A DNA stretch of 64,000 nt from Glycomyces amatae. Its GTDB lineage: Bacteria; Actinomycetota; Actinomycetes; Mycobacteriales; Micromonosporaceae. Positions within the stretch are counted from its first letter, which is position 1; the number at the start of each line of letters is the position of its first letter. Under the pieces are notes generated by a model. It saw nothing but the letters and a program-made list of their open reading frames with translations. It did no database searches and was not told where the DNA came from. The position numbers and the translations under genes were made by a program. The stretch spans positions 1 through 64,000 of the forward strand of contig NZ_JAJLQZ010000011.1 of assembly GCF_020991375.1 (NCBI RefSeq). Direction: 5' to 3'. Shown piece after piece: positions 14,608 to 61,907 of the stretch.

Positions 14608-16275
14608 ATGGGCGACACCTCCAGCGGAACCCGGTTCCGCCTCCAACGCCGAACCCTCTTCCAGGCCGGCGGCGCCGCCGCCGTCACCGCCTCCCTCACC
14701 GCCTGCGCCGACCTCGAGGAGGGCCCCGAGGGCACCGCCGCCGGGTCCGACGAACTCGCCGACCTGCTCCCCGAGTTCATCCCCTACGAGGGCGGCGTCG
14801 AGCCCGACCTGCCCGGCCGGCCCGACGGCACCGTCTCCCCCGGCTACCTCTCCCGGCCCGACCAGGTGCTCCAGGCCGTCGCCGAGAAGCCCATGACCAC
14901 CGGCGAGGAGATCACCGCGATCACCCCGCTGTGGAACCCGGCCCCGCCCGGCCTGCCCGGCAACTCCTACTTCACCGCCGTCAACGAGGCCCTCGGCGGC
15001 ACCGTCACGTTCAACATCGCCGACGGCAACAACTACGTCGACAAGATCACGACCACCCTCGCCGGCGGCGACGTCCCGGACATGTTCCAGATCCCCGGCT
15101 GGGAGATCATCAAGCTCTCCGACTTCACCGAGGCCGCGAACGAGCTGTTCGCCGACCTCTCGCCGTACCTGGCGGGCGCCAAGGCCGCCGACTACCCGCT
15201 CCTGGCCAACTACCCCACCGCCGCGTGGGCGATGGGCGTCTTCGGCGGCAGGCTCCTCGGCATCCCGTGGGAACGCGCGCCGTACACGAACACCATGTTC
15301 GCCCGCCAGGACCTGCTCGACGAGCTGGGCCTGGAGCACCCGACGAACCTGGAGGAGCTGCTGGCGATCGCCGAGGAGGTGAACGACCCCGCGAACAACC
15401 GCTGGGCCTTCGCCAGCCTCGACCAGACCGTCCAGGAGGCGATGGGCGTGCCCACCCTGTGGCGCGACGACGGCGGGAAGCTCGTCCACAAGTTCGAGAC
15501 CGAGGCGTTCGCCGCCGCGATCGAGTTCACCCGCCAGGTCTTCGACAAGGGCCTGGTCCACCCCGACTACGTGGCCGACCGCTTCACCAACACCAAGGAG
15601 ATCATCGGCTCGGGCCAGGCCGTGTTCTACGAGGACGGCCTCGGCGCCTGGCACGAGATGCTCGGCACCTACCGCGACGTGCCCGGCTTCGACCTCCAGG
15701 CCGTGAACCCGATGGCCGCCGAGCCCGGCGGCACCCCCACGATCTGGCGCGACGACCCGGCCGGCATGTTCACCTTCATCCGCAAGGACCTGTCCGAGGA
15801 GCGGATCAAGGAGTGCCTGCGCGTCGCCAACTGGTGCTCGGCGCCCTTCGGCACCGTCGAGTGGGACCTGGTGTGGGACGGCGTCGAAGGCGTCCACTTC
15901 ACCGTCGACGCCGACGGCGTCCCCCAGCGCACCGACCTGGGCCAGACCGAGGTCGCCAACACCTACCTGTTCCTCTCGGGCCGCTCCAACGCGAACTTCA
16001 AGTTCCAGTACCCGGGCCAGGTCGAGGCCCAGCACGCGTGGGAGACCAACGCCGCGCCGTTCCTCGACGACCACCCGTTCCAGGGCCTGCGCATCGAGAT
16101 GCCCTCCGACCTGGCCGCCGAGAACGAGCCGATGACGGACGCGCACCACGAGATCTACCGCGGCCAGCGCGAGGTCTCGGCGTGGGCGGCCCTCGTCGAG
16201 GACTGGCGCGCCAAGGTCGGCGACTCGGCCCGCGAGTACTACACCGGGATCGCCGAGGACAACGACCGCCTGTGA
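14608..16275 (+). CDS. Sugar ABC transporter binding lipoprotein, LplA-like
   Basis: This 555-residue exported lipoprotein carries a twin-arginine signal (QRRTLFQAGG) followed by a lipobox ending in LTACAD, so it is probably folded before export and anchored by Cys. The rest resembles the long LplA/YtcQ-type binding proteins for complex sugars. Conserved stretches include AVNEALGGTVTFNIADG and GDVPDMFQIPG. Its stop overlaps the GTG of the first permease by four bases. LplA-type systems usually import oligosaccharides from polysaccharides such as pectin, xylan or host glycans. The substrate cannot be read from the sequence. No ATPase gene is in the operon. Confidence 0.88.
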   Translation: MGDTSSGTRFRLQRRTLFQAGGAAAVTASLTACADLEEGPEGTAAGSDELADLLPEFIPYEGGVEPDLPGRPDGTVSPGYLSRPDQVLQAVAEKPMTTGEEITAITPLWNPAPPGLPGNSYFTAVNEALGGTVTFNIADGNNYVDKITTTLAGGDVPDMFQIPGWEIIKLSDFTEAANELFADLSPYLAGAKAADYPLLANYPTAAWAMGVFGGRLLGIPWERAPYTNTMFARQDLLDELGLEHPTNLEELLAIAEEVNDPANNRWAFASLDQTVQEAMGVPTLWRDDGGKLVHKFETEAFAAAIEFTRQVFDKGLVHPDYVADRFTNTKEIIGSGQAVFYEDGLGAWHEMLGTYRDVPGFDLQAVNPMAAEPGGTPTIWRDDPAGMFTFIRKDLSEERIKECLRVANWCSAPFGTVEWDLVWDGVEGVHFTVDADGVPQRTDLGQTEVANTYLFLSGRSNANFKFQYPGQVEAQHAWETNAAPFLDDHPFQGLRIEMPSDLAAENEPMTDAHHEIYRGQREVSAWAALVEDWRAKVGDSAREYYTGIAEDNDRL

Positions 16276-17255
16276 CCGCTCCGACGATCCAGTCCCCGGC
16301 CGATGCGGCCGGGGACGCTCCACCGCGCGCGGCGAAGCCGGGGACGCACTGGCGGGCGCGGCTGCGCCGCGACTGGCCGCTGGTGCTCATGGCGGCGCCG
16401 ATGATGCTCCTGGTGTGGGGGTTCTGGTGGATCCCCGCGCTGGGCAACGTGGTCGCGTTCCAGGACTACAAGCCCTACACGGGCGGGATCTTCGGCTCGC
16501 GCCTGGTGGGCTTCACGCACTTCCAGATGCTGTTCTCGGACCCGGACTTCCTCCGGGCCCTGGTGAACACGCTGTCGATCACCGCGTTCCAGCTGGTGTT
16601 CTACTTCCCGGTGCCGATCATGCTGGCGCTCCTGCTGCACTCGCTGACGTCCGCGAAGCTGCGGTCGATGCTCCAGAGCGTGGTGTACCTGCCGTACTTC
16701 TTCTCCTGGGTGCTCGTGATCGCGATCTTCCAGCAGATGCTCGGCGGGGCGGGGCTGCTCAACCAGCTGCTGCGCGCCGGCGGGTTCGAGGGCGTGGACT
16801 GGATGACCGATCCGGACACGTTCATCCTGCTGGTGACCTCGCAGGCGATCTGGAAGGACGCGGGGTTCGGGGCGATCATCTTCCTGGCGGCGCTGGCCGC
16901 GATCGACCCGAACCTGTACGAGGCGGCCGCGGTCGACGGGGCGGGCCGGTGGCGGCGGCTGTGGCACATCACGCTGCCGGGCATCCGGCCGGTGATCGTG
17001 CTGCTGCTGATCCTGCGGCTGGGCGACGCGCTCAACGTCGGGTTCGAGCAGTTCTTCCTCCAGCGCAGCGCGGTCGGCTCGCAGGCCTCGGAGGTGTTCG
17101 ACACCTTCGTGTACTACAGCGGCATCCGCACCGGCGACTTCGACTACGGGGCCGCGGCGGGCCTGTTCAAGGGCGTGGTGGGCCTCGTGCTCATCCTCGC
17201 CGCCAACAAGGCGGCCCACATGATGGGCGAGCGGGGGGTGTACTCCAAGTCATGA
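16272..17255 (+). CDS. Sugar ABC transporter permease, LplB-like
   Basis: This 327-residue permease starts at a GTG that overlaps the binding-protein stop (GTGA). A hydrophilic N-terminus of about 35 residues leads to six hydrophobic segments. The EAA loop reads EAAAVDGAGRWRRLWHITLPG, near the C-terminal third. Phrases such as GNVVAFQDYKPYTGG are typical of LplB/YtcP-type systems. It pairs with the permease starting at 17252, where ATG and TGA again overlap. The operon supplies no ATPase, as is usual for systems served by MsiK. Confidence 0.92.
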   Translation: MTAPTIQSPADAAGDAPPRAAKPGTHWRARLRRDWPLVLMAAPMMLLVWGFWWIPALGNVVAFQDYKPYTGGIFGSRLVGFTHFQMLFSDPDFLRALVNTLSITAFQLVFYFPVPIMLALLLHSLTSAKLRSMLQSVVYLPYFFSWVLVIAIFQQMLGGAGLLNQLLRAGGFEGVDWMTDPDTFILLVTSQAIWKDAGFGAIIFLAALAAIDPNLYEAAAVDGAGRWRRLWHITLPGIRPVIVLLLILRLGDALNVGFEQFFLQRSAVGSQASEVFDTFVYYSGIRTGDFDYGAAAGLFKGVVGLVLILAANKAAHMMGERGVYSKS

Positions 17256-40710: not shown

Positions 40711-40741
40711 GGCGCCCGTCTCCGGTGGGGAGGCGGGCGCC
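40711..40741 (+). terminator. Hairpin after the SGNH esterase gene
   Basis: A stem of about 13 base pairs, with one G-T pair, closes on a five-base loop; its outer arms are GGCGCCCG and CGGGCGCC. It starts 13 bases after the stop codon. Confidence 0.65.
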
Positions 40742-40767
40742 GCCGCTTCGCCCCGGGAATGTCCGTT

Positions 40768-40783
40768 TGCATCGTTGTACGAT
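40768..40783. promoter_or_regulatory. LacI operator at the regulator promoter
   Basis: TGCATCGTTGTA (40768-40779) matches the palindrome TACAACGTTGTA at 41874 in 10 of 12 bases. It overlaps a second short palindrome, ATCGT-N3-ACGAT. TACGAT (40778-40783) could be the -10 box of the regulator gene, so binding would be self-repressing. Confidence 0.65.
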
Positions 40784-40805
40784 CGTGAGGATTCGAGGAG
40801 GTGCC

Positions 40806-41816
40806 ATGGCGGCGACCCTGCACGACGTCGCGGACCTCGCGGGCGTGTCGTTCAAGACGGTGTCGAACGTGGTCAACGGCCACCCCCACGTCAGGCCCGC
40901 CACCCGCGAGAAGGTCGAGCGCGCGATCGCCGAGCTGGACTACCGGCCGAACCTCACCGCCCGGGGCCTGCGCAAGGGCCGCACCGGCGCGATCGCCCTG
41001 GCCGTCCCCGAACTCAACCTGAGCTACTTCGCCGAGCTCGCCAGCTTCGTCATCGCCGCCGCCGAGCGCTCCGGCCTGGTCACCCTCGTCGAGCAGACCG
41101 GCGGCGACCGCGACCGCGAGCTGGCCCTGCTGCGGAGCCCGCGGCTGCGCATGACCGACGGCCTCATCCTCAGTCCGCTGGGGATGCGGCAGGAGGACGC
41201 CGACGCGCTCGACGTGCCCTTCCCGCTGGTGCTGCTCGGCGAGCCGGTGTTCGACTGGCCCAGCGACCACGTCTCCATGCGCAACGCCGAGGCGGCCCGC
41301 GCCGCCACCGAGTACCTCATCGCCTCGGGGCGGCGGCGCATCGCCGTCATCGGCGAGTACGAGGACGAGGTCTTCGGCTCGGCCCGCGCGCGCCTGCGCG
41401 GCTACCGGGAGGCCCTGGAGGCGCACGGCATCGGGTACGACGGGCGCATCGTCGCGCACGCGACCCTGTGGCACCGGGCCGACGGGGCGCGCGCCATGCG
41501 CGAGCTGCTCGACCGCGGCGCGCCGTTCGACGCGGTCTTCGGCTTCAACGACACGCTCGCGCTCGGCGCGATGCGCGTGCTCCAGGAGGCGGGCCTGCGC
41601 GTCCCCGAGGACGTGGCGGTGCTCGGCTTCGACGACCTGGACGAGGCCGCCTACGCGATCCCCTCGCTCACCACGGTCGACCCGGGCCGCGAGTGGATCG
41701 GGCGGACCGCGGTCGAGACGCTGCTCGAGCGCATCGGCGGCGGGAGGGACGCCGCGCCCGCCACGCGACTGGCCGATTTCAGCATCGTCGAGCGGGAGTC
41801 CGCGCCCCGCGGGTGA
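40806..41816 (+). CDS. LacI-family transcriptional regulator
   Basis: This 336-residue repressor has the N-terminal LacI helix-turn-helix (ATLHDVADLAGVSFKTVSNVVNGHPHVRPATREKV) and a periplasmic-binding-like sugar domain. GAGGAGG lies before the ATG at 40806. It precedes a sugar transporter and a GH1 gene; related palindromes occur at its own promoter and twice before the binding-protein gene. It is therefore the probable local repressor of that operon, with a disaccharide as inducer. Confidence 0.92.
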   Translation: MAATLHDVADLAGVSFKTVSNVVNGHPHVRPATREKVERAIAELDYRPNLTARGLRKGRTGAIALAVPELNLSYFAELASFVIAAAERSGLVTLVEQTGGDRDRELALLRSPRLRMTDGLILSPLGMRQEDADALDVPFPLVLLGEPVFDWPSDHVSMRNAEAARAATEYLIASGRRRIAVIGEYEDEVFGSARARLRGYREALEAHGIGYDGRIVAHATLWHRADGARAMRELLDRGAPFDAVFGFNDTLALGAMRVLQEAGLRVPEDVAVLGFDDLDEAAYAIPSLTTVDPGREWIGRTAVETLLERIGGGRDAAPATRLADFSIVERESAPRG

Positions 41817-41835: not shown

Positions 41836-41912
41836 TTGACAGGGCCGCGAGGGGCGACGTACGATCCAGAAATTACAACGTTGTACAAGACTCACGTTTT
41901 TACAACGTTGCA
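41836..41912 (+). promoter_or_regulatory. Promoter and double LacI operator of the sugar-transport/GH1 operon
   Basis: TTGACA (41836-41841) and TACGAT (41860-41865) are 18 bases apart. Downstream lie TACAACGTTGTA (41874-41885), a perfect 12-base palindrome, and TACAACGTTGCA (41901-41912), 27 bases later. Two operators after the transcription start would give tight repression, and a spacing of 27 bases places them on nearly opposite faces of the helix. Confidence 0.85.
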
Positions 41913-41955
41913 CTAGGCGCAGACAGCGCAGTCTCGCATCGAGAGGGAATTGGAC

Positions 41956-43215
41956 ATGACACGCACGCGGATCTGGACGGGCGCCGCCGCGGCGCTCGCG
42001 CTCACGGCGGCGGTGGCGGGCTGCTCGGGCGGCGGCGAGGACGACGGCCCGGTCGAACTCACCTTCTGGCACGGCTACTCCGAGGCCGACGGCGACGTGC
42101 TCGAGGAGATCGTCGCCGACTTCAACGCCTCGCACGACGACATCACCATCGACACCGAACTGAAGACCTGGGACAGCATCGACGACACGCTGCTCACCGC
42201 GCTCTCCGCGGGCGAGGGGCCCGGCCTGGTGGCCATGCCCGCCGAGCGCCTCCCCGTGTACGCCTCCAAGGGCGCCTTCGCCTCGCTGGACGACTTCTAC
42301 GCCGACGAGGCGAGCAACACCGCGAACCTGGTCCCCGGCGCCGTCGAGATGGAGGAGGTCGAGGGCGAGAAGTTCGGCGTGCCGAGCGGCTTCGTGCCCC
42401 TGGCGGTGTACTACAACACCGCGCTCTTCGAGGCCGGGGGCGTGGACGAGTTCCCGCAGACCTGGGACGAGTGGGTCGAGGCCGCGAAGCGGCTCACCGT
42501 GGACGAGGACGGCGACGGCACGCCCGAGCAGTACGGCGTCGTGCTCCCCGACCACGCGACGGTCGCGAACGGCCTGTGGCCCTCGCTGTTCTACGGCAAC
42601 GGCGGCGGCATCGTCGACGGCGGCGAAGCGGTGATCGACTCGCCGGAGAACGCCGAGACGCTCGAGTTCTGGAGCGGCGCGATCGCCGCCGACCAGATCT
42701 CCCCCACCGGCGTCGACGGCATCGGCGCCGACGAGCTGTTCAGCGGCGGCAAGGCCGCCATGACCGTCGGCGGCCCCTGGATGGCCTCGATCGCCACCGA
42801 GAACGGCATCGACTACGCGATCGCCCCGCTCCCGGCCGGGCCCGCGGAGCAGGCCGCCTCGGCGATCGGCGTCTCCATGGCCGTCACCGTCGACACCAGC
42901 CGCGCCGAGCAGGCCGCGGCCGAGGAGTTCCTCTCGTTCTTCCTCAACGAGGAGAACTCCGTGAAGTGGTCGCTCGGCTCCGGCTGGCCGCCGCTGCGGA
43001 CCGACATCCCGGCCGAGGCGGTCGCCGAGAACCCGGTGGTGGCGTCCCTGACCGAGATCGCGGCGACCGGCCGGCCCCTGCTGCCGGGCGTGGTCAACAG
43101 CGTCGACGTGCTCAGCGCCGTCGACGAACTGACGCAGCGGGCCGTCGCGGGCGAGGACGTGGACGCGCTCCTCGCCGAGGCCCAGGCCGAGGTCCAAGCG
43201 GCGCTCGAAGACTGA
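41956..43215 (+). CDS. Sugar ABC transporter binding lipoprotein, family 1
   Basis: This 419-residue lipoprotein has a hydrophobic signal with lipobox VAGCSGG and the family 1 sugar-binding fold, shown by LTFWHGYSEADGDVLEEIVADFN near the mature N-terminus and GKAAMTVGGPWMASI further on. The ATG at 41956 is preferred to TTG 41950. It captures an oligosaccharide for the two permeases that follow. The GH1 enzyme in the same operon suggests a beta-glucoside such as cellobiose or laminaribiose. Confidence 0.92.
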   Translation: MTRTRIWTGAAAALALTAAVAGCSGGGEDDGPVELTFWHGYSEADGDVLEEIVADFNASHDDITIDTELKTWDSIDDTLLTALSAGEGPGLVAMPAERLPVYASKGAFASLDDFYADEASNTANLVPGAVEMEEVEGEKFGVPSGFVPLAVYYNTALFEAGGVDEFPQTWDEWVEAAKRLTVDEDGDGTPEQYGVVLPDHATVANGLWPSLFYGNGGGIVDGGEAVIDSPENAETLEFWSGAIAADQISPTGVDGIGADELFSGGKAAMTVGGPWMASIATENGIDYAIAPLPAGPAEQAASAIGVSMAVTVDTSRAEQAAAEEFLSFFLNEENSVKWSLGSGWPPLRTDIPAEAVAENPVVASLTEIAATGRPLLPGVVNSVDVLSAVDELTQRAVAGEDVDALLAEAQAEVQAALED

Positions 43216-54180: not shown

Positions 54181-55248
54181 TCAGGTCGGCAGGAGGCGCC
54201 GCACCGATCCGCGCAGGACCAGGTGGGTGCCGAGGACGGTGTGCGGCAGCTGGCCGCCCGCCCGCTGCTGGAGGGCGAGGCGGACGGCGGTGCGCCCCAG
54301 CTCCTCGTGCGGGAGGGAGACGGTGGTGAGGTCGATGTCCATCGCGGGCGGCAGGTCGTCGAAGCCGACCATCGAGACGTCGTCGGGGACGCGCAGGCCC
54401 GCTTCGAGGAGCGCCTGCCGCGCGCCCGCGGCGATCTGGTCGTTGGCGGCGAAGACCGCGGTGAAGTCCGGCGGGCCCGCCGAGAGGCGTTCCCGCATCA
54501 TCCGGTACCCCTCGAAGCGCTCGAAGGTGCCGTCCACCTCGAGGCCGGGGTCGCGGTCGACGCCGTGCGCGGCCAGGGCGTCGCGGTAGCCGGCGATCCT
54601 GGCGTCGGCGGTGGTGTAGCCCTCGCGGCGGCCGAGGAAGAGGATGCGCCGGTGGCCGCTGGAGAGCAGGTGGCCGGTGGCGGCGAAGGCGCCGCCGGTG
54701 TTGTCGTACTCGATGACGATGGCGGGCGCGTCGGGGCCGAGGGACGGGCGGCCGCACAGCACGAGCCGCGAGCCGATGGAGGCGAGGGCGTGCGCGTACC
54801 GGGTCATGCGGGCCCGGTACTCGTCGTCGACGGCGACGTTGCCGACCAGGATGACCGCCTCGGGGCGCTGCTCGCGCATGAACTGGACCATGGCGAGCTC
54901 GCGTTCGGCGTCGCCGCCGGTGGTGCCGATCTGGCACAGGCGGTTGTCCTCGGCGGCCTGGGTCTGAACGCCTTGGGCCACATGGGCGTAGTGCGGGGAG
55001 ATCACCGAGTTGAGGATGATCGCGATGCTCTTGCGGGTGGTGCCCTGGAGCGCCCTGGCGTGGTGGTTGGCGACGTAGTCGAGCTCCTCGACGGCCTTCA
55101 TGACCTTGGCGCGGGTGGCGGGGGCGGCCGGGTAGGTGCCCGAGAGGATGCGCGAGACGGTGGCGACGGAGACGCCCGCCAGCTCGGCCACCTCGCGGAT
55201 CGTGGTCTGGCGCGGGCCGTCTCCGGTCCTGGCTGCCCTCCGGGCCAC
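54181..55248 (-). CDS. LacI-family transcriptional regulator (probable pectin-regulon repressor)
   Basis: This 355-residue repressor has the LacI helix-turn-helix TIREVAELAGVSVATVSRILSG and a sugar-binding domain. The GTG at 55248 was chosen because it begins the usual short N-terminus; GTG 55257 is an alternative. CG-centred palindromes related to one another lie before this gene, before the binding-protein gene and on both sides of the two lyase genes. These fit LacI-type operators, which have a central CG. It probably controls the pectin genes, with a galacturonate- or rhamnose-containing sugar as inducer. Confidence 0.9.
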   Translation of the reverse strand: MARRAARTGDGPRQTTIREVAELAGVSVATVSRILSGTYPAAPATRAKVMKAVEELDYVANHHARALQGTTRKSIAIILNSVISPHYAHVAQGVQTQAAEDNRLCQIGTTGGDAERELAMVQFMREQRPEAVILVGNVAVDDEYRARMTRYAHALASIGSRLVLCGRPSLGPDAPAIVIEYDNTGGAFAATGHLLSSGHRRILFLGRREGYTTADARIAGYRDALAAHGVDRDPGLEVDGTFERFEGYRMMRERLSAGPPDFTAVFAANDQIAAGARQALLEAGLRVPDDVSMVGFDDLPPAMDIDLTTVSLPHEELGRTAVRLALQQRAGGQLPHTVLGTHLVLRGSVRRLLPT

Positions 55249-55275: not shown

Positions 55276-55289
55276 GTAAAAACGGTTAC
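55276..55289. promoter_or_regulatory. LacI-type operator before the regulator gene
   Basis: GTAAAAACGGTTAC keeps the AAAACG core and flanking bases of the GTTAAAACGATTTAA sites at 56797 and 59064. It lies 28 bases before the regulator start and suggests autoregulation. Confidence 0.6.
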
Positions 55290-55380
55290 TGAAACAATGA
55301 TTCACCGCCGCCGCAGGGGTGTCAAGCCCCGGCGCAGCAGTGGTTCGTTCGGCCGGTTCCCTTGGGGCGCAATGAGAACA

Positions 55381-55419
55381 GCGCACCGAGGGGCGGCGTC
55401 GAGCCGCCCCTCGGTGCGC
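55381..55419 (-). terminator. Long hairpin after the sugar-binding lipoprotein gene
   Basis: A perfect 17-base-pair stem with a five-base loop lies 21 bases after the binding-protein stop. It separates that gene from the regulator gene. Confidence 0.82.
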
Positions 55420-55439
55420 CGGTCACCGCGCAGGGCCGG

Positions 55440-56729
55440 TCACTGCTCAGAGGCGAAGAGGGTCTCGGCCTCGGTGAAGAAGAGGTCGGCGGCCTCCTCG
55501 GGGGTCATGGCGGCGTACTGGACCTGCTCGTAGATCTCCTGGTACTTCGCCTCGATCGCGCCCGCCGCCGAAGGGGGGACGGCCGGGGCGGGCTGGATGT
55601 AGTCGGCGACGGCGGCCTCGTAGTCGAGGACCAGCTGGGAGGCCTCGTCGATCTCGATGGCGTCGAGGCCCGCGGTCTTGGCGGGGATGCCGCGGTTGGT
55701 GCCGAGGATCGCGACGGCCCCGGGGTCGCCGAGGAAGAAGTCGATGAACTTCGCGCAGGCCTCGGGGCGCTCGGTGGTCGCGGAGACCACCAGCTGCATC
55801 GAGGGCTTGAGGTAGATGCCGAGGTTGGCGGGGTCGGTGGTGGGCGGGGCGCAGAGGCCGAGCTGCCCGCCCTGCTCCTGGACGGTGGGCAGGAAGCCGG
55901 AGACGGCGGTGTCCCAGCGGATCTCGGAGGCGACCGCGCCCTCGGCGATGGGGTCGGTGGCGAAGGCGGCCATCTCCTCCCCGGAGGGGACGAGGTCCTG
56001 CTCGACGAGCGGGGCGGTCATGGACCAGTACTCGACGAGCTGCTCCTTGGTGAAGCCGAGCGCGGCCGCGTCGTCGGAGTAGAAGACGCCGCCCTGCTGG
56101 CGGACCCACATCTCCATGAACAGGTAGGAGCGGGCCCAGTCCTCCCCCGCCCACAGGCCGTCGGGGAGGCTCCCCTGGAGGTCGGCGAGGAGGGCGGCGT
56201 AGTCGTCCCAGGTGTGGCCGGGCTCGGGCACGGCGACGCCGTGGGCGTCGAAGAGGTCGGCGCGGTAGATCAGGCCGAGGGTGTTGCCCGCGACGGGGAC
56301 GGCGACGAGCTGGTCGTCGAGGCGGCCGCCGTCGAGGAGGCCCTCGCGGAAGCCCTCGGTGTCCACGACGCCCTCGAGGGGCAGGAGCATCCCGCTGGTG
56401 GCGAACTGGCGCAGGCGCGGGTAGTCCATCTGGAACACGTCGGGGAGGTCGCGGGAGGCCATGCGGCCGGTCAGGCCCTCCCAGTGGGCGGCGTAGTCGG
56501 CGAAGTTGGCCTGGACCTTGATGCCCTCGTTCTTGGACTCGAAGAGGGCGATGGCCTCCTTGGTGAGCTCGGCGCGGGCCTCGTCGCCCCACCACTCGAA
56601 GCTGATCTCGATCGGGTCGTCGGCGGTGCCGGCGGGGCCGTCGTCGCTGCACGCCGCGGCCGCGGCCAGGGCGGCGGCGCCGGTGGCGCCCGCCAGGAGG
56701 CTCCGGCGGCGGATCGGGGAGAGGGGCAT
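55440..56729 (-). CDS. Orphan sugar ABC transporter binding lipoprotein, family 1
   Basis: This 429-residue lipoprotein has a twin-arginine signal (IRRRSLLAGATGAAAL) ending in a lipobox with AAACSDD. The mature part is a family 1 sugar-binding fold: IEISFEWWGDEARAELTKEAI at the front and LPDVFQMDYPRL later. No permease or ATPase genes adjoin it, so it must work with a transporter encoded elsewhere. The start at 56729 precedes the signal directly. Its promoter carries an operator identical to that of the exo-lyase gene, so its ligand is probably a pectin oligosaccharide. GGAG lies rather far (about 11 bases) from the ATG. Confidence 0.9.
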   Translation of the reverse strand: MPLSPIRRRSLLAGATGAAALAAAAACSDDGPAGTADDPIEISFEWWGDEARAELTKEAIALFESKNEGIKVQANFADYAAHWEGLTGRMASRDLPDVFQMDYPRLRQFATSGMLLPLEGVVDTEGFREGLLDGGRLDDQLVAVPVAGNTLGLIYRADLFDAHGVAVPEPGHTWDDYAALLADLQGSLPDGLWAGEDWARSYLFMEMWVRQQGGVFYSDDAAALGFTKEQLVEYWSMTAPLVEQDLVPSGEEMAAFATDPIAEGAVASEIRWDTAVSGFLPTVQEQGGQLGLCAPPTTDPANLGIYLKPSMQLVVSATTERPEACAKFIDFFLGDPGAVAILGTNRGIPAKTAGLDAIEIDEASQLVLDYEAAVADYIQPAPAVPPSAAGAIEAKYQEIYEQVQYAAMTPEEAADLFFTEAETLFASEQ

Positions 56730-56796
56730 GGTGTCTGCGCTCCTTTGCGGTGAGGGATCGGCGGCCGGGGTCGGGGACCCGGCCGCATGTACGTAC

Positions 56797-56854
56797 TTAA
56801 ATCGTTTTAACAGTTGATGGCGACACCTTAGAACGCGTTTTCCAAGACTGTCAA
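56797..56854 (-). promoter_or_regulatory. Promoter and LacI-type operator of the sugar-binding lipoprotein gene
   Basis: On the minus strand, TTGACA (56849-56854) is followed after 18 bases by TAAGGT (56825-56830). Just downstream lies TTAAAACGATTTAA (56797-56810), identical over 15 bases, with its leading G, to the site at 59064. A second CG-rich near-palindrome, GAACGCGTTTTC, falls in the spacer. Confidence 0.82.
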
Positions 56855-56891
56855 GCGCCATGCCGCGATCTTTCGGGAACCGAGGCCGAAG

Positions 56892-56925
56892 GCCTTCCCG
56901 CCCGACGGGAGTCGGGCGGGAAGGC
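56892..56925. terminator. Hairpin between the lyase gene and the lipoprotein promoter
   Basis: A 15-base-pair stem with a four-base loop lies six bases after the PL11 stop. It stops lyase transcription before it enters the promoter of the binding-protein gene. Confidence 0.8.
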
Positions 56926-56930
56926 GGGGC

Positions 56931-58793
56931 TCAGTAGGTGATGTTCGGCGTCTCCGGCTCGTTCATGCCCGCGCCGAGGAAGTAGTCGACGTGGTGGGAC
57001 TGCATGTAGCCGTGGAGGGTCATGGCGTTGCGGTACGCCGGGTTGTGCGCCAGCGTGTACAGGCGGATGTCGGTCGGGACGTCGGTGGTGAAGACGATGA
57101 GCTCGTCGTAGGCGGCGTTGGTGTAGACGGCCTCCTCTCGCCAGTCGCCGAACAGGTCGCCGACGAGGGTGGGACCGCCCTGCGCGGCGGTCACCGCGCC
57201 GTAGTTCCAGGTGGACTCCAGGCGCGGCAGGCTGTTGGTCGGCCGCGGGTCCTCGGGGTCCCACTTCTCGATCTTGCCGGAGTTGAGCAGCTCCATCGTG
57301 GCGTCGCCGTCCCACCACAGGCCCAGCTGCGGCCACGGCTGCAACTCGGTGTCGGGTTCGGTGAGCTCGTTCGAGGCGGCGTTGTAGAGCCCGTCGAAGG
57401 ACCAGACCTCCATGCCCGGGAAGTCCGGGTCGACGTCCCCGGCCATGCCGCGGCCGACGTCGCCGGTGCCGTCGAGGGCGTGCTGCCAGATCATGTCGCC
57501 GTTGTCGGCGTCGTAGTAGTACTCGCGCAGGCCGCTCGGGTTGTTCTGCTGCACGCCGTAGCCCTCCAGGCCCGGCCGGGACGGGTCCATGTCGGCGATG
57601 TGGAACCGGTCGCCGTGCACGATCCCCTCGTCGGCGAGGGAGTAGCGCAGGGTGCCGTCGCCGTTGAGCACGAAGCCGATCTCGGCGACCTCGTCCCTCC
57701 CGTCGCCGTCCACGTCGATGATGCGGGTGTTGTGGCCGTCGGGCAGGTCCTGGCCGCCGCGCAGGAACTTCCACTGCTGCGTCAGGTTCTGGCCGGACCA
57801 GTTCCAAGCGGCGATCATGAGGTTGAACGCGCCGCCGTCCTGGCGGTTCTTCATGTAGGCCACCAGGCTCGGCGTGACGCCGTCGAGGTGGCCGACGCCG
57901 AAGCGGGCGGCCAGCGGTCCGTCGGCGATGTAGTCCTGGGGAATGCTCGAGTAGTTGCGCAGCGCGCCGGTGCGGCCGTCGAGGATCGCCACCCACTGGC
58001 GGTTGTCATCGGAGTGGGTCCAGGTCTGGCCGTCGCCGAAGGTCACGCCGTCGGCGATCTTCAGCGCGACCTCGGCGTAACCGTCGGAGTTGAAGTCGTA
58101 GACGGTGACGCCGTCGTTGTGGCCGACGTCGATCGTGGCCGACCCGGGTTCGATGTTGTCCTGGTTCGTCGAGTTGGGGCCGAGGTCGACCTCCCACAGG
58201 AACTCGCCCGTGGAGGTGTACGCCTCGATCGACTGCGGGCTGGTCTGGCGGTCGATCACGTAGTCGAACTCGCCGTCCCCGTCCAGGTCGCCGGTCCACG
58301 CGAACTTGACGGCGCCGCCCGCGCGCAGCGGGATGCGGACGACCGGCTCCTCGGCGTGGTTCGCGCTCAAGGTGAACGCGCCGCTCGGGTCCTGCTCCGA
58401 GCCGCCGACGACGGGGACGACGCGGTAGGCGTTGGACTGGGAGAGGTTCGCGGTCGAATCGGTGTAGTTGGTGCCGCCGGTGAGGACCGCGCCGTTGAGC
58501 TTGACCCAGGAGCCGCCGTTCGCGGACCGGTAGACGTTGAAGCCGATGCCGGAGGGGTCGAGCCCGAGGAGGCGCCAGCTGACGAGCACGTCGTCGCCCG
58601 CGGCGCGGACGGCCACGACGCCGCGGCCGAGGTCCTCCATGGGCCTCGCGGCCTGCTGCGCCCCGTTGTCCGTCGGGGCGGCCGGGTCGTCGGGGTCCGC
58701 GTGGGCGGACGAGGCGCTGACGGCGAACGCGGCCCCGGCGGCCAGGAGGCCGGCGGCGGCTGCGATGGCCGACGATTTCGTAAACGTTTTCAC
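56931..58793 (-). CDS. Secreted rhamnogalacturonan lyase, polysaccharide lyase family 11
   Basis: This 620-residue secreted enzyme should cleave the rhamnogalacturonan I backbone of pectin by beta-elimination. The signal peptide runs to about ASSAHA. A fibronectin-like front domain precedes an eight-bladed propeller with repeated Asp-rich calcium loops (LDGDGEFDY, FNSDGYAEVA, VDGDGRDEVAE, GDWREEAVY). These motifs and the end NPAYRNAMTLHGYMQSHHVDYFLG are typical of PL11 (YesW/YesX type). GTG 58793 with a GGAG site is preferred to TTG 58838, which lies inside the operator. No binding module is attached. Confidence 0.93.
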   Translation of the reverse strand: MKTFTKSSAIAAAAGLLAAGAAFAVSASSAHADPDDPAAPTDNGAQQAARPMEDLGRGVVAVRAAGDDVLVSWRLLGLDPSGIGFNVYRSANGGSWVKLNGAVLTGGTNYTDSTANLSQSNAYRVVPVVGGSEQDPSGAFTLSANHAEEPVVRIPLRAGGAVKFAWTGDLDGDGEFDYVIDRQTSPQSIEAYTSTGEFLWEVDLGPNSTNQDNIEPGSATIDVGHNDGVTVYDFNSDGYAEVALKIADGVTFGDGQTWTHSDDNRQWVAILDGRTGALRNYSSIPQDYIADGPLAARFGVGHLDGVTPSLVAYMKNRQDGGAFNLMIAAWNWSGQNLTQQWKFLRGGQDLPDGHNTRIIDVDGDGRDEVAEIGFVLNGDGTLRYSLADEGIVHGDRFHIADMDPSRPGLEGYGVQQNNPSGLREYYYDADNGDMIWQHALDGTGDVGRGMAGDVDPDFPGMEVWSFDGLYNAASNELTEPDTELQPWPQLGLWWDGDATMELLNSGKIEKWDPEDPRPTNSLPRLESTWNYGAVTAAQGGPTLVGDLFGDWREEAVYTNAAYDELIVFTTDVPTDIRLYTLAHNPAYRNAMTLHGYMQSHHVDYFLGAGMNEPETPNITY

Positions 58794-58824
58794 TGATGCT
58801 CCAGACTTGCCGTTGAACTGGACT

Positions 58825-58839
58825 TTTGAATCGTTCAAA
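58825..58839. promoter_or_regulatory. LacI-type operator of the PL11 gene
   Basis: TTTGAA-N3-TTCAAA is a perfect inverted repeat. Read on the minus strand with its leading G it gives GTTTGAACGATTCAAA, sharing the AACGATT core of the sites at 56797 and 59064. It lies 31 bases before the chosen GTG start, after the promoter. Confidence 0.75.
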
Positions 58840-58927
58840 CCGGTCGATCGTCCGCAAGCGCTTCACGCTGCGGAGCCCCGGCGGGCGGCGTGCGCGCCCT
58901 CTCGGTGCGGCGCGGTGCCGTCCAACG

Positions 58928-58957
58928 CATCTAAACATAGATGAATATAGATGACAA
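58928..58957 (-). promoter_or_regulatory. PL11 promoter with a second inverted repeat
   Basis: On the minus strand TTGTCA (58952-58957) and TTAGAT (58929-58934) are 17 bases apart. CATCTA-N4-TAGATG (58928-58943) overlaps the -10 box and part of the spacer, and a further TAGATG half-site lies at 58948-58953. This second motif differs from the LacI-type sites, so another regulator may act here. Confidence 0.7.
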
Positions 58958-59021
58958 GGGCGTGTTCAGCAGTGATGATCTCCGAGAGGAGCACCATCAC
59001 CCCATGAGATGCGGGAACCCG

Positions 59022-59078
59022 TTGACCGGGGATCGACTCATGGCTATATTGAAGCCCCTGGAAGTTAAAACGATTTAA
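59022..59078 (+). promoter_or_regulatory. Promoter and LacI-type operator of the exo-lyase gene
   Basis: TTGACC (59022-59027) and TATATT (59045-59050) are 17 bases apart. TTAAAACGATTTAA lies at 59065-59078, about at the start of the transcript. It is the exact reverse complement of the + strand sequence at 56797-56810. Confidence 0.85.
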
Positions 59079-59111: not shown

Positions 59112-61907
59112 GTGTCCGACCCATCACCGGCACTCGAACCCACTCCGTCCCTTCACGAACCGTCCCTCAACGAACCGACCGGCGGCGTCCGCCGCCGGAG
59201 CCTCCTCGCCACCGGGGCGGGCGTCGCCGCGGCGGCCGCGCTCCTCGACGGCTCCCCTGCGAGAGCGCAGACCGCGGCCGACCCCGGCCCCGACTCCGTC
59301 GAGCTCAAATGGCTCGAAGGCGCGCCCGCCGAGTCGCCCGGCTCGACCTGGGGCGTGCCCTGGGGCCAGGGCCGCTTCCCCGGCGACCAGGCCTTCAAAC
59401 TCACCGGCAGCGACGGCGCCGCGGTACCGGTCCAGACCTGGCCGCTCGCCTACTGGCCGGACGGGTCCCTGAAGTGGACCGGCCACGCCATCGGCCCGCA
59501 CGCGACCCAGGAGGCGTTCACGCTCGAGGCGGGCGAGGCGGCCGCGCCGGCCTTCGCCGTCTCGGTCTCCGAGTCGAAGAAGCACATCGACGTCAGCACC
59601 GGCGTGATCACCGCGCGGATCGGCAAGTCCGGGACCGACCTGGTCAAGCACGTCAAGCGCGGGGACCGGACCCTCGTCAAGGGCGGGCACCTGGTCAACA
59701 TCACCCAGGAGGAGGCCCCCGATCCGGAGACCGGCTCGGTGAGCAGGGACCGGTACGTCTCGGAGATCGACGAGGTCACCGTCGAGCAGGAGGGCCCGGT
59801 GCGGGCCGTGGTCAAGGTGACCGGCAATCACCGCAAGACGAAGGGCCGCAACAAGTCCTGGCTGCCGTTCACCGTCCGCCTGTACTTCTACGCGGGCGGC
59901 GAGTCCTTCCGCATGGTGCACACGTTCGTCTACGACTCGGACGGGAACGAGGAGTTCATCGCCGGCCTCGGCGTCCGGTTCAAGGTCATGCTCACCGACG
60001 AGCTCTACGACCGGCACGTCCGGTTCGTGGGCGAAGGCCACGGGCAGCTCACCGAGGCCGTCCGCGGCATCACCGGCCTGCGCCGCGACCCGGGGGCGGC
60101 GGTGCGGGAGGCGCAGATCGCCGGGCAGGCGCTCCCGGACCCGGCCACCTGGGACCAGCGGGTGACCTCGCGCCTGCACTGGATCCCCGCGTGGGGCGAC
60201 TACTCGCTCGCCCAGCTCAACTCCGAGGGCTTCGCGATCAGGAAGCGCACCAAGGAGGGCCACGGCTGGGTCCCGGCCGACCAGGGCCGCCGCGCCTCCG
60301 GCTTCGCCTACGTCGGCGGGGTCTCGGGCGGGTTCGGCTTCGGCATGAAGGACTTCTGGCAGCGCCACCCCACCGGGCTCGACATCCGCGACGCCCACAC
60401 CGACGAGGCCACCGTGACGGTGTGGATGTGGTCGCCCGAGGCGCAGCCGATGGACAACCGGTTCTACCACGACGGCCTCGGCCAGGACACCTACGAGCAG
60501 CAGCTCGACGCCCTCGAGGTCACCTACGAGGACTACGAGCCCGGCTTCGGGACCCCGCACGGGGTGGCGCGGACGACCGAGCTCCAGTTCTGGGTCACCG
60601 AGGCGACCCCGAGCCGGGAGCGCCTGGGCGCCATGGCCGACGCCGTCCGGGCGCAGCCGCAGGTGATCGCCCCGACCGGGCACATGAGCGCCGCCGGAGC
60701 GTTCGGCGGCCTGTTCGGCCCGGTCGACCGGTCGAGTCCGGTCAAGGAGACGGTCGAGAACGGCCTCGACTTCTACTTCGACTACTACCGCCTCCAGCAG
60801 GAGCAGCGGCACTGGTACGGGTTCTGGGACTACGGCGACTTCATGCACTCCCAGGACGGCGACCGGAAGGTCTGGCGCTACGACGTCGGCGGCTACGCCT
60901 GGGACAACTCGGAGATCTCCCCGGACATGTGGCTGTGGCAGTACTACCTGCACACCAACCGGGCCGACGCGTTCCGCTTCTGCGAGGCGATGACCCGCAA
61001 GACCAGCGAGGTCAACGTCTACCACATCGGCGACTGGGCCGGGCTCGGCACCAGGCACGGCGTGCAGCACTGGGGCGACTCCTCGAAGCAGCTGCGCGTC
61101 TCGAACGCGAACTACCGCAGGTACTTCTACTACCTGACGGCGGACGAGCGCACCGGCGACCTGCTCCACCTCCTCTCCAAGGGCGAGGAGACGGCCCTGG
61201 TGCTCGACACCGGCCGCAAGATCCGCGACCCCGAGGCGGACCCGTGGGAGCCCGACCGGAACGCCGTGGACATCGGCTTCGGCACCTCCTGGGCGGCGCT
61301 GGCGGCGGCCTGGCTGACCGAGTGGGAGCGGCGCGGACCGGACTGGGAGTTCTGCCGGGACAAGGTCCTCGGCACGATGGAGACCATCGCGGCCCAGCCC
61401 AGCGGCTTCGCTCAGGGCTCGGCGCTGTACGACATCGACACCGGCAGGTACGCCATCGCCGAGGAGCCCGTCGTCGAGCGCTCGAACCTCTCCAACTCGT
61501 TCGGCAGGCCGGAGATCTGCGCGGAGCTGATCCAGCAGATCGACATGCCCGCGTTCGAGGAGGACTGGTTCAGGTACTCCCGCTTCTACACCGCCACCTT
61601 CGAGGAGCAGGAGGCGGAGTACGGCGGCCGGTTCTCGGACCTGTTCCTGTACGCGTACGCCCGCGCCAACGCGTTCATCTACAGCCGGACCGGCGACGAG
61701 TCCCAGGCGACGCACGCCTGGCACCGCTTCCTGAACCCGATCAAGTCCTGGGAGATCCGGACCGAGTGGCCGAAGGAGTCCGAGGCGGTGGGCGAGACGC
61801 TCAACCCGACCGACTGGTACGGGGTGGCCACCAACGAGATCGCCCAGTACGGCCAGGCCGCGATCCAGATCCTGCACCTGGCCGGGGAGTTCGCGCCCGA
61901 AGCGTAG
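59112..61907 (+). CDS. Secreted PcRGLX/YetA-like exo-rhamnogalacturonan lyase (PL26-type)
   Basis: This 931-residue protein has an N-terminal extension of about 25 residues rich in Pro, Glu and Ser, followed by a twin-arginine signal (RRRSLLATGAGVAAAAALLDG) and a cleavage site near ARAQ. The mature protein matches the PcRGLX/YetA family, whose fungal member releases disaccharides from the end of rhamnogalacturonan I. Typical stretches are WGVPWGQGRFP, HWIPAWGDYSLAQ and YGFWDYGDFMHS. Three domains are expected: a front beta-sandwich, an alpha/alpha barrel and a rear beta domain. GGAGG precedes the GTG. With PL11 it would break rhamnogalacturonan I to small pieces. Confidence 0.88.
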   Translation: MSDPSPALEPTPSLHEPSLNEPTGGVRRRSLLATGAGVAAAAALLDGSPARAQTAADPGPDSVELKWLEGAPAESPGSTWGVPWGQGRFPGDQAFKLTGSDGAAVPVQTWPLAYWPDGSLKWTGHAIGPHATQEAFTLEAGEAAAPAFAVSVSESKKHIDVSTGVITARIGKSGTDLVKHVKRGDRTLVKGGHLVNITQEEAPDPETGSVSRDRYVSEIDEVTVEQEGPVRAVVKVTGNHRKTKGRNKSWLPFTVRLYFYAGGESFRMVHTFVYDSDGNEEFIAGLGVRFKVMLTDELYDRHVRFVGEGHGQLTEAVRGITGLRRDPGAAVREAQIAGQALPDPATWDQRVTSRLHWIPAWGDYSLAQLNSEGFAIRKRTKEGHGWVPADQGRRASGFAYVGGVSGGFGFGMKDFWQRHPTGLDIRDAHTDEATVTVWMWSPEAQPMDNRFYHDGLGQDTYEQQLDALEVTYEDYEPGFGTPHGVARTTELQFWVTEATPSRERLGAMADAVRAQPQVIAPTGHMSAAGAFGGLFGPVDRSSPVKETVENGLDFYFDYYRLQQEQRHWYGFWDYGDFMHSQDGDRKVWRYDVGGYAWDNSEISPDMWLWQYYLHTNRADAFRFCEAMTRKTSEVNVYHIGDWAGLGTRHGVQHWGDSSKQLRVSNANYRRYFYYLTADERTGDLLHLLSKGEETALVLDTGRKIRDPEADPWEPDRNAVDIGFGTSWAALAAAWLTEWERRGPDWEFCRDKVLGTMETIAAQPSGFAQGSALYDIDTGRYAIAEEPVVERSNLSNSFGRPEICAELIQQIDMPAFEEDWFRYSRFYTATFEEQEAEYGGRFSDLFLYAYARANAFIYSRTGDESQATHAWHRFLNPIKSWEIRTEWPKESEAVGETLNPTDWYGVATNEIAQYGQAAIQILHLAGEFAPEA

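What the first reader, a model, noticed from the sequence alone, without database searches (positions are those of the whole stretch)
55276..59078. A pectin regulon read from four CG-centred operators
GTTAAAACGATTTAA is found, identical over 15 bases, just after the promoters of the sugar-binding lipoprotein (56797-56811) and the exo-lyase (59064-59078). Variants with the same core precede PL11 (58825) and the LacI gene (55276). All four genes lie within 8 kb and three have readable promoters. The LacI protein is the natural repressor.
Basis: partly seen in the sequence, partly recalled or inferred. Interest (0 to 1): 0.7.

Follow-up and report, generated by a model that had tools for sequence, protein, structure and literature searches.

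The report
LacI-controlled rhamnogalacturonan-I regulon in Glycomyces
A soil actinomycete keeps its genes for eating one part of pectin (rhamnogalacturonan I) behind a shared DNA switch that is probably closed by the neighbouring LacI-type repressor; the switch is conserved across the genus, but of a familiar kind.

Summary
Three of the four sites hold. The 15-mer is exact at 56797-56811 and 59064-59078, about 7-21 bases after the inferred transcription starts of the lipoprotein and PL26 genes, and nowhere else exact in the genome. In 22 Glycomyces genomes all 21 exact copies lie at this cluster. Where the LacI orthologue and the target gene were both found, the site precedes the lipoprotein gene in 17 of 17 species and PL26 in 18 of 18. 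One species without the LacI gene keeps PL11 and PL26 but has no operator. The PL11 site is weaker. The site before the LacI gene is not this motif (5 mismatches); a different conserved element there resembles an older operator form (GTAANCGNTTTAC) beside LacI orthologues in other genera. The substrate is rhamnogalacturonan I, not pectin at large. Another LacI regulator with a similar operator stands beside the rhamnose operon. Best reading: an ordinary local LacI repressor regulon. I found no description of it in print. Binding and inducer are untested.

The parts
54181..55248 (-). LacI-family regulator (355 aa), proposed repressor
   Evidence: Pfam LacI HTH and Peripla_BP_3 above cut-off; orthologue at 76-89% identity in 18 of 21 other Glycomyces genomes, 70-73% in Nonomuraea, Streptosporangium and Streptomyces
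55281..55295 (-). GTTTCAGTAACCGTT just after the LacI gene's -10; probable autoregulatory site of the older operator form (CG at 55283-55284)
   Evidence: Conserved in 19 of 19 orthologous promoters: 14 exact, 4 one mismatch, 1 two; GTAANCGNTTTAC form before the LacI gene in 4 of 6 distant orthologues at <=1 mismatch
55297..55325 (-). promoter of the LacI gene, TTGACA-17-AATCAT
   Evidence: conserved (two of the 19 differ in the -35: TCGACG and TTGACG)
55379..55421 (-). terminator-like hairpin (19 pairs) between the lipoprotein and LacI genes
55440..56732 (-). sugar-binding lipoprotein (SBP_bac_1) without permeases beside it
   Evidence: 65% identical to the binding protein near the rhamnose genes on contig C12
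56797..56811 (-). operator 1, GTTAAAACGATTTAA, about +7 to +21 of the inferred transcription start
   Evidence: 33.9 bits, rank 2 in the window; present before the lipoprotein gene in 17 of 17 LacI-bearing species in which that gene was located
56825..56854 (-). promoter of the lipoprotein gene, TTGACA-18-TAAGGT
   Evidence: read, not listed by the scan; same layout before rhaI in G015
56931..58796 (-). PL11 rhamnogalacturonan lyase
   Evidence: Pfam RGL11_C and RGI_lyase; solved PL11 enzyme 4cag over 49-619 of 621, and YesW and YesX
58780..58793 (-). operator candidate over the PL11 start codon (TGAAAACGTTTACG on the minus strand)
   Evidence: [AG]TG[AG]AAACGTTTA in 17 of 18 LacI-bearing species with PL11 (exception G021); TTT is 11 of 1734 Phe codons in the ORFs sampled from this genome; absent in G009, which has no LacI orthologue
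58826..58840 (-). operator in the PL11 leader, GTTTGAACGATTCAA (3 mismatches)
   Evidence: 11.2 bits, rank 4 in the window; counterparts in G011, G004, G012, G015
58929..58957 (-). inferred PL11 promoter, TTGTCA-17-TTAGAT
   Evidence: read; not found by the scan
59022..59050 (+). PL26 promoter, TTGACC-17-TATATT
   Evidence: conserved in the intergenic regions
59064..59078 (+). operator 2, GTTAAAACGATTTAA
   Evidence: 37.5 bits, rank 1 in the window; 18 of 18 LacI-bearing species with PL26, one of them in a diverged form
59112..61907 (+). PL26 exo-rhamnogalacturonan lyase homologue (931 aa)
   Evidence: three PcRGLX domains; PcRGLX structures over 62-922 at 6e-231

Best explanation
The LacI-family protein at 54181-55248 is a local repressor of rhamnogalacturonan-I use. 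Without inducer, a dimer sits on CG-centred palindromes (consensus GTTAAAACGATTTAAC) placed just after the transcription starts of the lipoprotein and PL26 genes and blocks them. It also acts on PL11 through a site over the start codon, helped in some species by a leader site, and on its own promoter through a related older-form site. A breakdown product of RG-I, most likely an unsaturated rhamnogalacturonan disaccharide or another rhamnose-bearing sugar, releases it. Shown: sites, positions, conservation, co-occurrence with the regulator. Inferred: binding, direction of control, inducer, release by it.
For: Exact sites found nowhere else in the genome; 21 of 21 exact copies in 22 genomes lie at this cluster (placed). 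Site before the lipoprotein gene in 17 of 17 and PL26 in 18 of 18 LacI-bearing species where the gene was located. G009 has no LacI orthologue, keeps adjacent PL26 (77%) and PL11 (69%), and has no operator (best score -2.7 bits in 14 kb) and no start-codon palindrome. A matrix trained without this genome ranks the two sites first and second of the window. Of 6 orthologue loci in three other genera, 5 hold PL26, PL11 or DUF2264 genes (one of them only a 34% PL11 match), with 12 sites of the older form in 121 kb against 0 in 502 kb of Glycomyces control loci and a mean of 0.13 (largest 1) in 30 Markov sets. The recognition-helix residues SVATVSRILSG are the same in this protein and in all 6 distant orthologues.
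Against: No binding or expression data exist. Co-occurrence rests on one informative species (G009), whose intergenic region differs throughout, so the cluster there may have come from elsewhere. I did not test whether another regulator's presence fits the pattern as well. The site before the second PL11 gene (26.5 bits under this matrix) and the one beside an lldD-like gene (29.7 bits) score high outside the cluster, and the first persists in three species without the LacI orthologue, so similar sites can serve another protein. The LacI-gene site does not fit the matrix. G008 has the LacI gene but neither the cluster nor the 15-mer. Four of the 12 older-form sites are the LacI promoters from which I derived that pattern.
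Confidence: 0.82

Rival explanations
1. The sites are read by another LacI-family protein, above all the RhaR-like one on contig C12 beside the rhamnose operon, and the neighbouring LacI protein controls only itself or something else.
For: The C12 regulator is in 22 of 22 genomes, each with a site matching ATGAAACGATTCAA at 13 or 14 of 14 positions in its locus. The PL11 leader site here scores 13.5 under its matrix against 11.2.
Against: G009, G017 and G020 keep the C12 regulator but have no exact or one-mismatch copy of the 15-mer. The lipoprotein and PL26 sites score 33.9 and 37.5 under the LacI matrix against 17.9 and 9.0. In G015 the stretch before rhaI bears both kinds of site as separate elements. 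The two proteins are 30% identical.
Confidence: 0.1
2. Both regulators act on shared hybrid sites such as the one before the second PL11 gene (ATTGAAACGATTTAA), so RG-I and rhamnose use form one overlapping network.
For: The exact hybrid site is in 19 of 22 genomes, and lies upstream of the second PL11 gene in 7 of 7 loci looked at; 26.5 and 15.2 bits under the two matrices. G015 has rhaI downstream of both kinds of site. The lipoprotein is 65% identical to the binding protein near the rhamnose genes.
Against: Persistence of the hybrid site in three species without the window regulator shows that it does not need it.
Confidence: 0.3
3. The start-codon palindrome in PL11 is kept for translation (open, A-rich start of the mRNA), not as an operator.
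For: A-rich second codons are common at start sites in general (recalled); Ravcheev 2014 reports under 1% of LacI-family sites inside coding regions (passage seen). G021 has the LacI orthologue yet AAACGCTT at this place.
Against: TTT at codon 4 in 17 of 18 species when TTT is 0.6% of Phe codons sampled here, and the perfect AAACGTTT symmetry; in G009, which has no LacI orthologue, the start is ATGAAAGCGTCAACA, without the palindrome.
Confidence: 0.35

Closest known systems
RhaR of Actinomycetales (LacI family; Rodionova 2013, PMC3870299, passages seen)
   Same: LacI-family regulator of rhamnose-related genes, including uptake of rhamnose-bearing oligosaccharides, in actinomycetes with palindromic operators; the paper also places lldD in some RhaR regulons
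   Different: The RhaR-like protein here is the one on contig C12, beside rhaI and the rhaD-ADH fusion; the window protein is 30% identical to it, has another operator and stands with RG-I lyases
RhiR of Rhizobiales and Erwinia (LacI family; same paper)
   Same: LacI-family regulator predicted for a rhamnogalacturonide uptake cluster, separate from the rhamnose regulator
   Different: No orthology shown: the relatives from Martelella (33%) and Brenneria (34%) whose neighbours I looked at lie beside sugar ABC transporters of another type (5 neighbours each)
CelR of actinobacteria (LacI family; PMC3377646, passages seen)
   Same: LacI-family regulator with palindromic sites in actinobacteria; [quoted passage not shown]
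   Different: A cellulose regulon answering to cellobiose with a different palindrome (a variant printed in the passage is AGGGAGCGCTCTCT)
RhgR of Bacillales (named in PMC3870299, passages seen)
   Same: Controls rhamnogalacturonan use; YesW and YesX of a Bacillus are solved relatives of the PL11 here (species recalled)
   Different: A different protein family (AraC, recalled), so only a functional analogue
PcRGLX, founding PL26 exolyase of Penicillium chrysogenum (5xq3; source and activity recalled)
   Same: Nearly full-length relative of the product of 59112-61907
   Different: Fungal, and no comparable operator control is implied

Membership tests
LacI-family transcription factors | LacI HTH plus periplasmic-binding-protein-like sensor domain | tested here: met
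   PF00356 60.4 bits (cut-off 27) and PF13377 125.5 bits (cut-off 26.5)
LacI-family transcription factors | even palindromic operator with a central CG | tested here: met
   GTTAAAACGATTTAAC form in other species, one mismatched pair beside the centre; general rule from PMC4052901
LacI-family transcription factors | binds the operator and is released by a sugar | not testable with these tools
   needs gel shift and ligand assays
RhaR (LacI type) of Actinomycetales | linked to rhamnose isomerase and the aldolase-dehydrogenase fusion | tested here: not met
   those genes lie on contig C12 beside another LacI protein; in one other species, G015, rhaI has moved next to PL11
RhiR (LacI type) | orthology with RhiR and a rhi transporter cluster | tested here: inconclusive
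   no named RhiR was in hand; two 33-34% relatives are not in RG-I loci
Polysaccharide lyase family 11 | RGL11 catalytic domain | tested here: met
   PF21348 248 bits, cut-off 27; solved PL11 enzymes
Polysaccharide lyase family 26 | three-domain PcRGLX architecture | tested here: met
   PF19501, PF21345, PF21346 all above cut-off
Polysaccharide lyase family 26 | exo-acting rhamnogalacturonan lyase activity | not testable with these tools
   inferred from homology

The most novel reading that the evidence does not exclude
An operator is built into the coding sequence over the PL11 start codon and is the most constant control point of that gene, since the leader operator comes and goes among species: selection for repressor binding overrides codon choice in a 73% GC genome. 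Alongside, the genus operator has drifted from GTAANCGNTTTAC to GTTAAAACGATTTAAC while the recognition helix stayed the same and the LacI gene kept the older form.
Probability: 0.45. Interest if true: 0.45.

Novelty: new member of a known kind. Interest (0 to 1): 0.34.

Why it matters
It gives a testable operator and regulator for rhamnogalacturonan-I lyases of families PL11 and PL26 in actinomycetes. My literature searches found no described regulon of this kind; the nearest was a remark that one actinobacterial rhamnogalacturonan lyase may answer to CelR. It separates the RG-I regulon from the rhamnose regulon in the same genomes, and offers a case of operator drift with an unchanged recognition helix and a species in which regulator and operators are missing together.

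Tried and rejected
Treating every TTGAAACGATTYAA site as part of the regulon: rejected, because the site before the second PL11 gene persists in three species without the window regulator, and the rhamnose-type site stands beside the C12 regulator in all 22 genomes. Treating the LacI-gene site as a fourth copy of the motif: rejected on matrix score and conservation. Close LacI paralogues (52-58% identical) as owners of the motif: I fetched 20 such loci; in the 2 from this genome (L073, L074) no site entered the top 12 of the matrix scan, and one search reported no exact 15-mer outside the cluster; the other 18 were not scanned with the matrix. GTTTCNGNAACCGTT as a genome-wide motif: outside the LacI promoters there is one exact match (G002:C1:605715) and scattered one-mismatch matches, and the reversed control is also hit. 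A GH88/GH105 hydrolase as downstream regulon member: none found in the genome (PF07470; the control rang in 3 of 14 genomes). DUF2264 genes elsewhere in this genome (2): no site in the fetched 4 kb loci. Distant LacI relatives as RhiR: neighbours of the two looked at do not fit. A paper on DUF2264: none held. In one search tblastn began at residue 24-48 of PL11 in 8 species, so their upstream windows were misplaced; replace them. Loci L064, L065 and L070 gave no lipoprotein, PL11 or PL26; G015 and G021 were then covered by L116, L256 and L257; G015's lipoprotein gene was not located.

Full report
What is there. The window is the start of contig C3 of a 6.17 Mb genome; the genus, Glycomyces, is inferred from named records of the orthologues. 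The genes are a LacI-family regulator (54181-55248, minus), a sugar-binding lipoprotein (55440-56732, minus), a PL11 rhamnogalacturonan lyase (56931-58796, minus) and a PL26 exo-rhamnogalacturonan lyase homologue (59112-61907, plus). Solved PL11 and PcRGLX structures match most of the two lyases. The substrate is therefore rhamnogalacturonan I, a narrower claim than pectin.

The sites. GTTAAAACGATTTAA occurs exactly twice in the genome, before the lipoprotein and PL26 genes. Each lies 13 bases after a readable -10 hexamer, so a bound repressor would cover the first transcribed bases. The PL11 variant differs at 3 of 15 positions, the LacI-gene variant at 5 of 15. At up to 3 mismatches the genome has 14 matches against 4 for the reversed control; those outside the cluster are discussed below.

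Conservation. The LacI orthologue is in 18 of 21 other genomes of the genus (76-89% identity). In 15 of these 18 the order PL26, PL11, lipoprotein, LacI is seen on one stretch; the exceptions are G015 (LacI at a contig end), G021 (parts on different contigs) and G008 (no cluster). In many species a DUF2264 gene stands in the cluster as well (9 of 9 candidate ORFs tested). Where gene and LacI orthologue were both found, the operator precedes the lipoprotein gene in 17 of 17 species and PL26 in 18 of 18, counting one diverged form in G021. All 21 exact 15-mers in the 22 genomes lie at the cluster. At up to 2 mismatches there are 79 matches against 5 for the reversed control. In G015 one exact copy now stands before the rhamnose isomerase gene, in a promoter laid out like the lipoprotein promoter, together with a rhamnose-type operator. 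A matrix from 30 sites of the 15 other species ranks the two window sites first and second, the PL11 leader fourth, the PL11 start-codon site fifth, and the LacI-gene site eleventh with a negative score; third is an unrelated palindrome at 41870.

The natural test. G009 has adjacent PL26 and PL11 genes (77% and 69%) but no LacI orthologue; its best LacI matches are the paralogues at 55%. No operator is found there, and the palindrome over the PL11 start codon is absent. This is one species, and its intergenic region differs throughout. The reverse case, G008, has the LacI gene but neither the cluster nor the 15-mer.

The PL11 start codon. On the PL11 strand the gene starts GTGAAAACGTTTACG. [AG]TG[AG]AAACGTTTA is kept in 17 of 18 LacI-bearing species (16, G005); the exception is G021 with ATGAAAACGCTTCC. 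TTT codes 11 of 1734 phenylalanines in the sampled ORFs of this genome. The leader operator, in contrast, is seen only in G000, G011, G004, G012 and G015. In several other species PL11 and PL26 lie close together and the single PL26 operator falls between them; G001 and G003 have long gaps and no leader site. I read the start-codon palindrome as a probable operator; a role in translation is the rival.

The LacI gene. Its promoter and a following GTTTCNGNAACCGTT are conserved in 19 of 19 orthologues (14 exact, 4 one mismatch, 1 two). Six orthologues at 70-73% from Nonomuraea, Streptosporangium and Streptomyces lie near PL26, PL11 or DUF2264 genes in 5 loci, one of them by a 34% PL11 match only. 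These loci carry GTAANCGNTTTAC: 12 sites at up to one mismatch in 121 kb, against 0 in 502 kb of Glycomyces control loci and a mean of 0.13 (largest 1) in 30 Markov sets. Four of the 12 are the LacI promoters from which the pattern came. Of the other eight, one precedes a DUF2264 gene, one falls 51 bases inside the called start of a PL26 ORF, and one, in Nonomuraea terrae, precedes a permease pair. The Glycomyces LacI promoter keeps the left half of this older form (GTAACCG), at 2 mismatches to the whole. The recognition helix is the same in the window protein and the six distant ones (G021 differs by one residue). Autoregulation through an older-form site is my reading.

A second regulator. 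On contig C12 another LacI protein (30% identical) stands beside rhaI and the rhaD-ADH fusion. It is in 22 of 22 genomes, each with a site close to ATGAAACGATTCAA (13 or 14 of 14). ATTGAAACGATTTAA is exact in 19 of 22 genomes and lies before a second PL11 gene in 7 of 7 loci looked at, three of them in species without the window regulator. The PL11 leader site scores 11.2 and 13.5 bits under the window-regulator and rhamnose matrices in this species, but favours the window regulator in the other four (20.5 against 5.5, 15.7 against 8.1, 22.7 against 3.8, 6.7 against -2.1).

Transport. The lipoprotein has no permeases beside it. It is 65% identical to the binding protein near the rhamnose genes, next to which a permease gene lies (C12:232383-233255). 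I infer that the two binding proteins share that transporter. No GH88/GH105 hydrolase was found in the genome, so the next step for the unsaturated product is open.

Literature. Rodionova 2013 (PMC3870299; passages seen) predicts LacI-type RhaR in Actinomycetales and RhiR in Rhizobiales and Erwinia. Ravcheev 2014 (PMC4052901; passages seen) gives the CG-centred palindrome as the family rule; the search terms rhamnogalacturon, rhamnose and pectin have no occurrence in its main text. PMC3377646 (passages seen) says that a rhamnogalacturonan lyase of Nocardiopsis dassonvillei may be regulated by the LacI-family protein CelR, a cellulose regulator. PMC8579813 (passages seen) describes RhaR and RhaR2 for rhamnogalacturonides in Caldicellulosiruptor. 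For the rest I saw listings only. None showed a LacI regulon for PL11 and PL26 in actinomycetes. The library lacks most subscription journals, and RegPrecise could not be consulted.

Verdict. An ordinary local LacI repressor regulon for rhamnogalacturonan I, newly delimited, with two details worth an experiment: the start-codon operator and the operator drift.

Noticed in passing
window 41870-41916: Two further CG-centred palindromes (AAATTACAACGTTGTACAAG and TTTTTACAACGTTGCACTAG) in the gap between another LacI-family gene (40725-41816) and a binding-protein gene (41950-43215); probably a second local sugar regulon with its own motif.
   Followed up: partly
window 14608-17246: Binding protein and permease genes; the permease at 16296-17246 is 55% identical to the permease of the Nonomuraea terrae RG-I locus. 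No site of this regulon is before them in the scans (top matches).
   Followed up: partly
own genome C23:357929-360370 (L015): A second PL11 gene beside integrase-like ORFs, with ATTGAAACGATTTAA upstream; that site is exact in 19 of 22 genomes of the genus, including three without the window regulator.
   Followed up: partly
own genome C3:121190-121204 (L017): A strong site (29.7 bits) between another LacI gene and an FMN-dependent lactate dehydrogenase-like gene; lldD is named in some RhaR regulons in PMC3870299.
   Followed up: partly
own genome C28:19921-28460 (L258): A second PL26 homologue (48%) near a permease related to the Nonomuraea RG-I permease (46%), with GAGTTGAATCGGTTCAATCG and a TTGAAAGGATTCAA palindrome without central CG some kilobases away.
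   Followed up: no
L055:5442-7130 and counterparts: A DUF2264 gene stands about 60 bases after PL11 in several species; by sequence it is nearest to solved beta-glucuronic acid dehydratases (9o4u, 9nwf). The window cluster lacks it; the genome has two elsewhere.
   Followed up: partly
G015 contig C8:1-860 (L095): The rhamnose isomerase gene stands after a lipoprotein-type promoter with the 15-mer and a rhamnose-type operator: apparent capture of rhaI by the RG-I promoter.
   Followed up: yes
own genome C66:27510-30460 (L020): A beta-helix protein and a ricin-lectin protein, each preceded by a site scoring higher under the rhamnose matrix (22.5 and 18.2 bits) than under the LacI matrix (15.8 and 15.6).
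   Followed up: no
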